Origin: Methanobrevibacter sp.
GTDB taxonomy: Archaea > Methanobacteriota > Methanobacteria > Methanobacteriales > Methanobacteriaceae
Direction: 5' to 3'
Length of the DNA: 36,239 bases
NCBI RefSeq assembly: GCF_030539555.1
Contig: NZ_JAUNXX010000014.1
Span: 1 to 36,239 of the forward strand
The notes under the pieces were generated by a model that was not told the origin of the DNA, made no database searches, and was given only the letters and a program-made list of their open reading frames with translations. Made by a program: the position numbers and the translations under genes. Positions 19,490 through 20,451 of the stretch are shown here, one piece after another. How positions within the stretch are numbered: position 1 is the first letter of the stretch; each line of letters opens with the position of its first letter.

Positions 19490-19558
19490 GATTATTAATA
19501 TGGTTTTTTCCGTATATTAATTGTTATTAAATTAAAATAAGGATAATAATATTTATAG

Positions 19559-19585
19559 GGTTAGGAATTTAATATATGGTTAGGA
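19559..19585 (+). repeat. 27-base box upstream of the first antitoxin (copy 1)
   Basis: GGTTAGGA occurs at 19559-19566 and again at 19578-19585, spaced by an AT stretch. The 27-base unit recurs at 19836-19862 with about three-quarters identity. It sits between a TATA-like AATATTTATA (about 19548-19557) and the ATG at 19595, so it is a plausible operator for autoregulation. Confidence 0.5.
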
Positions 19586-19594
19586 AGTGATTCA

Positions 19595-19831
19595 ATGGTT
19601 AGTATTACTAGTATATATGACAAGTTTCAAACAGTAATACCTCAAGAAATAAGGCAGGAATTTAATTTGGACAAATCTTATAAAATAGAATGGCGTATAA
19701 ATGATAATGGAAAAGTAGAATTGGATTTCATTAAAGAATTGTCTCTTGAGGATATGGTTGGAAGATATGTTTCTTCAGAACCGATAAATGCAGTTGAATT
19801 AAAGAATGATTTTAAGAATGGAAAATTGTAA
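19595..19831 (+). CDS. vapB: VapB-type antitoxin (AbrB/SpoVT fold)
   Basis: This 78-residue protein has an N-terminal AbrB-type DNA-binding swapped hairpin (MVSITSIYDKFQTVIPQEIR, residues 1-20, then FNLDKSYKIEWRIN). It has a C-terminal toxin-binding tail, LEDMVGRYVSSEPINAVELK followed by NDFKNGKL. The ribosome site GGAAGTGAT precedes ATG 19595. A shortened second antitoxin and a PIN toxin follow on the same strand, so this is the regulator of a VapBC-type locus. The DNA-binding part should bind the GGTTAGGA repeats just upstream (inference). Confidence 0.85.
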   Translation: MVSITSIYDKFQTVIPQEIRQEFNLDKSYKIEWRINDNGKVELDFIKELSLEDMVGRYVSSEPINAVELKNDFKNGKL

Positions 19832-19835
19832 TTAA

Positions 19836-19862
19836 AGTTAGGTAAATTATATGTAGTTAGGA
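19836..19862 (+). repeat. 27-base box upstream of the second antitoxin (copy 2)
   Basis: This stretch, bounded by AGTTAGG and AGTTAGGA, matches the box at 19559-19585 at about 20 of 27 positions and keeps the distance between the two GTTAGG halves. It shows that regulatory DNA, not only the antitoxin tail, was duplicated. Confidence 0.5.
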
Positions 19863-19887
19863 TATCAATATAAAACTAGGTGGTATT

Positions 19888-20064
19888 ATGCAGATATATA
19901 ATCCTAAAATAAACAGATTTCCGATAAAAAATAATCCTTCAGTTAATCGAATGCCTAATTTAAAAAATCATCTGGATTTGGAGGATATGGTTGGAAGATA
20001 TGCTTCAATTGAACCAATAAACTGCGTCGACTTAAAAAATGAGTTTAAAAGAGGGGAGATTTAA
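19888..20064 (+). CDS. Truncated VapB-like antitoxin lacking the AbrB domain (58 aa)
   Basis: The ATG at 19888 gives 58 residues. Residues 29-56 (LDLEDMVGRYASIEPINCVD, then LKNEFKRG) match the toxin-binding tail of the preceding antitoxin almost residue for residue, and the DNA is also similar (19748-19826 versus 19981-20059). The first 28 residues (MQIYNPKINRFPIKNNPSVN...) are Asn/Pro-rich and replace the AbrB DNA-binding domain. The toxin gene starts at the very next base after its stop, so this truncated protein is the one translationally coupled to the toxin. I infer that it neutralises the toxin without repressing the promoter. Confidence 0.72.
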   Translation: MQIYNPKINRFPIKNNPSVNRMPNLKNHLDLEDMVGRYASIEPINCVDLKNEFKRGEI

Positions 20065-20451
20065 TTGTATTTTTTGGATACGACATTTATTGTAGGTTTG
20101 TTCGTATCGAATGACCCTTGGCATCCTAAGGCCAAAAAAATCTATGAAAGAATTAAAGATGATGAATTGATTATATCTAAATTGGTTATTGCCGAGACAA
20201 TAACTGTTTTGAAGAATAAACTCAAAACCAAGGATATACTCGAAATCTATCGGAATATCCCAAATATCTTTAAAATAATTGAAGATACAAACTTGTTTGA
20301 TGAGGCAATGGATGAATATGTTAAGTACGATTCAGATATCTCTTTTTTTGATGCTATATATGTTACTGTAATGAAAAAGGAGAATATTCATGAATTGATA
20401 AGTTTTGATGAAGATTTTGATAGGGTTGATGGAATTGTTAGAATCCATTAA
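20065..20451 (+). CDS. vapC: PIN-domain ribonuclease toxin (VapC-like)
   Basis: The 128-residue protein is a complete PIN domain. Acidic active-site residues are Asp5 (FLDTTFIV), Glu44 (VIAETITVL), Asp96 (SFFDAIYV) and Asp115/Asp117 (SFDEDFDR). VapC toxins cut RNA, often tRNA or rRNA, in a Mg-dependent way; the target here is unknown. The start is TTG at 20065, immediately after the stop of the truncated antitoxin, with GGGGAG at 20053-20058 as ribosome site. The weak start codon fits a toxin made in smaller amounts than its antitoxins. Confidence 0.9.
   Translation: MYFLDTTFIVGLFVSNDPWHPKAKKIYERIKDDELIISKLVIAETITVLKNKLKTKDILEIYRNIPNIFKIIEDTNLFDEAMDEYVKYDSDISFFDAIYVTVMKKENIHELISFDEDFDRVDGIVRIH

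What the first reader, a model, noticed from the sequence alone, without database searches (positions are those of the whole stretch)
19559..20451. Toxin-antitoxin locus with a duplicated antitoxin tail that has lost its DNA-binding domain
Two antitoxin genes precede one PIN toxin. The first has an AbrB DNA-binding domain. The second keeps the same toxin-binding tail (LEDMVGRY.S.EPIN..xLKN.FK.G) but replaces the AbrB domain with an Asn/Pro-rich leader, and it is the one fused in translation to the toxin. A 27-base upstream box is also duplicated, so a regulatory-plus-coding unit was copied and then remodelled. This could split repression and neutralisation between two proteins, with conditional cooperativity altered.
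Basis: seen in the sequence. Interest (0 to 1): 0.75.

Follow-up and report, generated by a model that had tools for sequence, protein, structure and literature searches.

The report
Three-gene toxin-antitoxin with headless antitoxin
A methane-producing gut archaeon carries a toxin guarded by two related antitoxins, one that also has a DNA-binding part and one reduced to the toxin-gripping tail; the same arrangement is kept in eight species, so toxin-gripping and gene control have apparently been partly separated by duplication.

Summary
ORF1 (19595-19831) is an AbrB-type antitoxin. ORF2 (19888-20064) carries the same C-terminal tail without an AbrB domain. ORF3 (20065-20451) is a PIN (VapC-like) toxin with intact acidic residues. 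A pair of GTTAGG motifs 19 bp apart precedes both antitoxin genes. Eight of 67 genomes of the genus carry this arrangement; every close relative of the toxin in the genus has it, and these toxins form one clade (95/93 support). The next relatives, in other genera, have the ordinary two-gene form (full AbrB-tail antitoxin overlapping the toxin), so the three-gene form is derived. ORF2's tail is under purifying selection (dN/dS 0.06-0.16 in the two closest pairs); its leader is not, varies from about 15 to 34 residues and is basic rather than Asn/Pro-rich. The exact operator pattern occurs 12 times in the 67 genomes, 11 of them at these loci. ORF2 and toxin are translationally coupled, not fused. 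Most likely ORF1 autorepresses both promoters (and can still bind toxin), while ORF2 neutralises the toxin it is co-translated with. Binding and repression are inferred, not shown. Verdict: new variant of a known kind (VapBC), working like omega-epsilon-zeta or PaaR-PaaA-ParE but made by paralogy.

The parts
19550..19557 (+). putative TATA element of promoter 1 (TATTTATA)
   Evidence: T/A-rich element directly 5' of the first GTTAGG in the eight loci; inferred, no transcript data
19560..19584 (+). operator 1: GTTAGG-N13-GTTAGG
   Evidence: perfect pair at this place in 5 of 8 loci (spacing 19 or 20), one degenerate half-site in the other three
19595..19831 (+). ORF1: full-length AbrB-headed antitoxin (78 aa)
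   Evidence: PF15937/PF04014 sub-threshold matches; only PF04014-like match found in this genome
19739..19828 (+). ORF1 toxin-binding tail (T1)
   Evidence: gapless match to T2; dN/dS 0.05-0.09 in the two closest pairs; toxin binding inferred
19837..19861 (+). operator 2: GTTAGG-N13-GTTAGG
   Evidence: a pair of GTTAGG-like half-sites 19-20 bp apart precedes ORF2 in all eight loci
19875..19880 (+). third, degenerate half-site ACTAGG overlapping the Shine-Dalgarno AGGTGGT of ORF2
19888..20064 (+). ORF2: tail-only antitoxin (58 aa), no DNA-binding head
   Evidence: conserved in eight genomes
19888..19971 (+). ORF2 leader, variable, no similarity to the AbrB head
19972..20061 (+). ORF2 toxin-binding tail (T2)
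   Evidence: constrained tail against unconstrained leader; toxin binding inferred
20052..20058 (+). Shine-Dalgarno-like AGGGGAG of the toxin, inside the last codons of ORF2
   Evidence: sequence
20065..20451 (+). ORF3: PIN-domain (VapC-like) toxin, TTG start directly after the ORF2 stop
   Evidence: PF01850 E 3.3e-19; D5, E44, D96, D115 invariant in eight orthologues; fold matches VapC20 and VapBC structures

Best explanation
A three-gene VapBC-type toxin-antitoxin locus derived from a two-gene one. An ancestral operator + AbrB-tail antitoxin + PIN toxin (still seen in sister genera) had its promoter-antitoxin unit duplicated; the copy next to the toxin then lost its AbrB head and kept only the toxin-binding tail. 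ORF1 dimerises through AbrB and represses both promoter 1 (its own) and promoter 2 (ORF2-toxin) at GTTAGG repeats lying between TATA and start codon. ORF2, made by coupled translation with the toxin, occupies the toxin's groove and active site and so neutralises each new toxin molecule without bringing it to DNA. ORF1 can probably still bind toxin, giving a second layer of neutralisation and feedback. Shown: anatomy, conservation, selection on both tails, locus-specific operator, derived origin. Inferred: tail-toxin binding, ORF1-operator binding, nuclease activity, effect on regulation.
For: Three-gene form in 8/67 genus genomes; every PIN of at least 65% identity in the genus has AbrB + tail-only ORF + PIN. 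One clade of toxins, 95/93, nearest to a two-gene locus of another genus. Two-gene outgroups with AbrB-tail ORF overlapping PIN (L099, L101-L103), GTTAGG upstream in L101-L103. 20 other PIN loci sampled in the genus have an upstream antitoxin with an AbrB- or RHH-like N-terminal region, judged by eye; none is tail-only. ORF2 tail: dN/dS 0.055 and 0.16 in the two closest pairs, codon-position differences 0.33/0.18/0.54, against 0.42/0.39/0.46 in the leader. Operator pattern: 12 hits in 67 genomes, 11 at these loci. PIN acidic residues invariant. AlphaFold2 of the natural in-frame ORF2-PIN readthrough gives the block holding the tail helix mean pLDDT 82 (window) and 87 (G011), so that helix is not modelled as a loose peptide. 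In S. flexneri VapBC the VapB tail after an AbrB head wraps VapC and the complex binds two operator sites (PMC3384007).
Against: No experiment. Solitary ORF1 copies without ORF2 or toxin (G059, G018) also keep the tail, so tail retention in ORF1 need not mean toxin binding. The covariation of T1 and T2 across species is weak (Mantel p 0.04; own-locus against cross-locus p 0.07). The fusion models have a short artificial linker (part of the tail below pLDDT 50) and coordinates could not be inspected. The tail tree cannot resolve one against several origins of T2.
Confidence: 0.7

Rival explanations
1. ORF1 is now only a DNA-binding regulator (a paralogous autorepressor that no longer meets the toxin), and ORF2 + PIN is the whole working toxin-antitoxin pair: complete division of labour as in omega-epsilon-zeta.
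For: ORF2 is the toxin-proximal, coupled partner; solitary ORF1 copies persist without toxin in G059 and G018.
Against: T1 is under purifying selection about as strong as T2 and keeps the same motif.
Confidence: 0.15
2. ORF2 acts mainly as a toxin sponge for regulation: by taking toxin away from ORF1 it blocks toxin-driven assembly of ORF1 on the operators and so weakens or reverses conditional cooperativity; neutralisation is shared.
For: Two operators with repeated half-sites; tail without head; known role of toxin as corepressor in type II systems (stated in PMC8630535).
Against: No data on stoichiometry or on corepression here.
Confidence: 0.08
3. ORF2 is a decaying relic or a mere leader peptide that couples translation to the toxin.
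For: Leader shows no codon constraint; no family match.
Against: Tail constrained at protein level in eight genomes, frame intact in all, start codon and SD conserved.
Confidence: 0.05

Closest known systems
VapBC with SpoVT/AbrB-type VapB (Shigella flexneri VapBC, PDB 3TND; PMC3384007)
   Same: PIN toxin, AbrB head plus C-terminal wrapping tail, two operator sites
   Different: Two genes; here a second antitoxin consists of the tail alone and has its own promoter-operator copy
PaaR2-PaaA2-ParE2 (E. coli O157:H7; PMC8630535)
   Same: Three genes: DNA-binding regulator, antitoxin without DNA-binding domain, toxin
   Different: ParE toxin; no shared tail between PaaR2 and PaaA2 is described in the passages read; the authors ask whether PaaA2 lost a DNA-binding domain. 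Here the headed paralogue sits next to the headless one
omega-epsilon-zeta (pSM19035; PMC4803016)
   Same: Separate repressor and neutraliser
   Different: Different toxin and regulator families; omega is a regulator, not an antitoxin
HipBST (PMC10627512, PMC9325769)
   Same: Tripartite locus in which a small separate protein neutralises the toxin
   Different: HipS corresponds to the N-terminus of the HipA toxin, not to an antitoxin tail; kinase toxin
Two-gene AbrB-tail/PIN loci of sister genera (L099, L101-L103)
   Same: Same toxin lineage, same tail, GTTAGG upstream in L101-L103
   Different: Single full-length antitoxin directly overlapping the toxin

Membership tests
VapBC type II toxin-antitoxin | PIN-domain toxin with conserved acidic active-site residues | tested here: met
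   PF01850 E 3.3e-19; D5, E44, D96, D115 invariant; fold match to VapC20 and VapBC complexes
VapBC type II toxin-antitoxin | upstream antitoxin with N-terminal DNA-binding domain and C-terminal toxin-binding tail | tested here: met
   ORF1, though the AbrB-type matches lie below curated cut-offs
VapBC type II toxin-antitoxin | the antitoxin adjacent to the toxin has the DNA-binding domain | tested here: not met
   ORF2 lacks it in all eight loci
VapBC type II toxin-antitoxin | antitoxin neutralises toxin RNase activity | not testable with these tools
   no bench data
VapBC type II toxin-antitoxin | autoregulation at operator repeats in own promoter | tested here: inconclusive
   locus-specific repeats at both promoters; binding not shown
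omega-epsilon-zeta | zeta kinase toxin and RHH omega repressor | tested here: not met
   PIN toxin, AbrB-type regulator
PaaR-PaaA-ParE | ParE toxin with HTH regulator | tested here: not met
   PIN toxin, AbrB-type regulator

The most novel reading that the evidence does not exclude
A three-component toxin-antitoxin system caught in the act of arising: duplication of the whole operator-antitoxin unit, loss of the DNA-binding head from the toxin-proximal copy, and division of labour between a headed repressor and a headless neutraliser that share one tail and therefore compete for one toxin, giving a new form of feedback.
Probability: 0.35. Interest if true: 0.65.

Novelty: new variant of a known kind. 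Interest (0 to 1): 0.5.

Why it matters
How three-component toxin-antitoxin systems with a DNA-binding-free antitoxin arise is an open question raised for PaaA2 (PMC8630535). Here the headed and headless paralogues lie side by side, the two-gene ancestral form survives in sister genera, and the operator was copied too, so the step from two to three components can be tested directly. It also gives natural material for testing conditional cooperativity, because one lineage makes extra tails that cannot bind DNA.

Tried and rejected
ORF2 as noise or relic: rejected by eight intact orthologues and selection on the tail. Leader as remnant of AbrB coding DNA: no similarity (DNA score below the shuffled mean, protein score 14). 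Asn/Pro-rich leader as a feature: not conserved. Nucleotide-level conservation of the leader: a hint in one pair (p 0.04) not repeated at that level in five others. T1-T2 covariation as proof of a shared partner: weak. Independent tail-only antitoxins in other genera (L083, L084, L121, L122): frames broken, cut by the contig end or beside a disrupted toxin, so not counted. Relatives on viral contigs: none found. No paper found on a paralogous headless VapB, within an open-access library only.

Full report
What is there. The window is from a Methanobrevibacter-like archaeon: the nearest named relatives are Methanobrevibacter MAGs, several from ruminants. At 19550-20451 lie, on the + strand, a TATA-like element, a pair of GTTAGG motifs, an AbrB-type antitoxin gene (ORF1, 78 aa), a second GTTAGG pair with a third degenerate copy over the Shine-Dalgarno, a 58-codon ORF (ORF2), and a 128-codon PIN toxin gene starting TTG immediately after the ORF2 stop. 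The tail of ORF1 (residues 49-78) matches the tail of ORF2 (29-58) without gaps, score 113 against at most 56 in 5000 shuffles. ORF2 has no head: it matches no family, and its first 28-30 residues show no similarity to the AbrB head at protein or DNA level.

Is it conserved? Of 67 genomes of the genus, eight (the window's included) carry a PIN at least 65% identical to the window's, and all eight have the same three genes in the same order. ORF2 is intact in all. Its tail evolves like a coding sequence (differences by codon position 0.33/0.18/0.54; dN/dS 0.16 and 0.055 in the two closest pairs); its leader does not (0.42/0.39/0.46) and varies from about 15 to 34 residues, usually rich in Lys/Arg. 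ORF1's tail is constrained too (0.09 and 0.05). Coupling to the toxin takes three forms: stop followed within a few bases by an in-frame start (window, G014, G042, G011), overlap (G008, G041, G023), or a short out-of-frame gap (G044).

Where did it come from? In sister genera the nearest toxins are preceded by one full-length AbrB-tail antitoxin overlapping the toxin by one to four bases (L099, L101-L103), with GTTAGG motifs upstream in L101-L103. In a tree of 25 PIN proteins the three-gene toxins are one clade (95/93), with two-gene L099 as nearest row (85/76). All 20 other PIN loci sampled in the genus have an upstream antitoxin with an AbrB- or ribbon-helix-helix-like N-terminal region, judged by eye (L031 and L035 longer and less certain); none is tail-only. 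So the two-gene form is ancestral and the headless copy most simply a single derived event; the 29-column tail tree cannot test it. Losses also occur: G059 keeps ORF1 alone, G018 has a solitary ORF1 with a different upstream region, and G051 has a broken ORF1.

The operator. Aligned on the start codons, both units show T/A-rich TATA-like sequence, GTTAGG, 19-20 bp, GTTAGG (or a near match), SD, ATG. In the 67 genomes the exact pattern GTTAGG-N13-GTTAGG occurs 12 times, 11 of them at these loci; the twelfth is elsewhere in G051, and a reversed control pattern is scattered over many genomes without preference for these. This is strong evidence for a locus-specific operator, copied with the antitoxin. 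That ORF1 is what binds it is an inference from its AbrB head.

Mechanism. In S. flexneri VapBC, VapB has an AbrB-type head and a tail that wraps VapC and appears to displace the active-site metals, and the complex binds two operator sites (PMC3384007). By analogy, both tails here should fit the PIN toxin. The PIN acidic residues are invariant, and the fold matches VapC20 and VapBC complexes. Reading through the natural in-frame stop, AlphaFold2 gives the block with the tail helix mean pLDDT 82 (window) and 87 (G011, longer linker), while most of the leader is of low confidence; this is consistent with docking but not proof. ORF2 would neutralise toxin as it is made without tethering it to DNA; ORF1 would repress both promoters and may bind toxin as well. 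With two tails competing for one toxin, toxin-dependent assembly of repressor on DNA should change; this is prediction.

Comparison. It works like PaaR-PaaA-ParE and omega-epsilon-zeta, in which repressor and neutraliser are separate (PMC4803016, PMC8630535), but belongs to neither by toxin or regulator family. It is a VapBC relative in which the toxin-adjacent antitoxin fails the usual test of carrying a DNA-binding domain. The PaaR2 authors ask whether such an antitoxin could have lost its DNA-binding domain; here the headed paralogue and the two-gene ancestral form are both visible.

Limits. No bench data; mostly draft genomes; sub-threshold AbrB matches in Pfam; literature limited to open-access papers; fused-chain models only, coordinates not inspected.

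Noticed in passing
L047 (G059), L048 (G018), L043 (G044:C54:1869-2096, minus): Solitary AbrB-tail genes without ORF2 or toxin keep the toxin-binding tail; G044 has one about 1 kb from its three-gene locus.
   Followed up: partly
L104, L105, L123: Toxins close to this PIN clade are paired with RHH-like antitoxins, so the DNA-binding head appears to have been exchanged.
   Followed up: no
G000:C89 (L002 and L003): Two tandem RHH-like-antitoxin/PIN pairs in the same genome, each followed by a further small ORF that resembles the N-terminal part of the pair's antitoxin.
   Followed up: no
L040, L041, L044, L045, L047: Shared neighbourhood (adhesin-like gene downstream; flavin-reductase-like gene upstream where read) suggests vertical inheritance in that subclade; the window's locus sits elsewhere, between an ADP-ribosylglycohydrolase-like gene and a metabolic gene pair.
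   Followed up: partly
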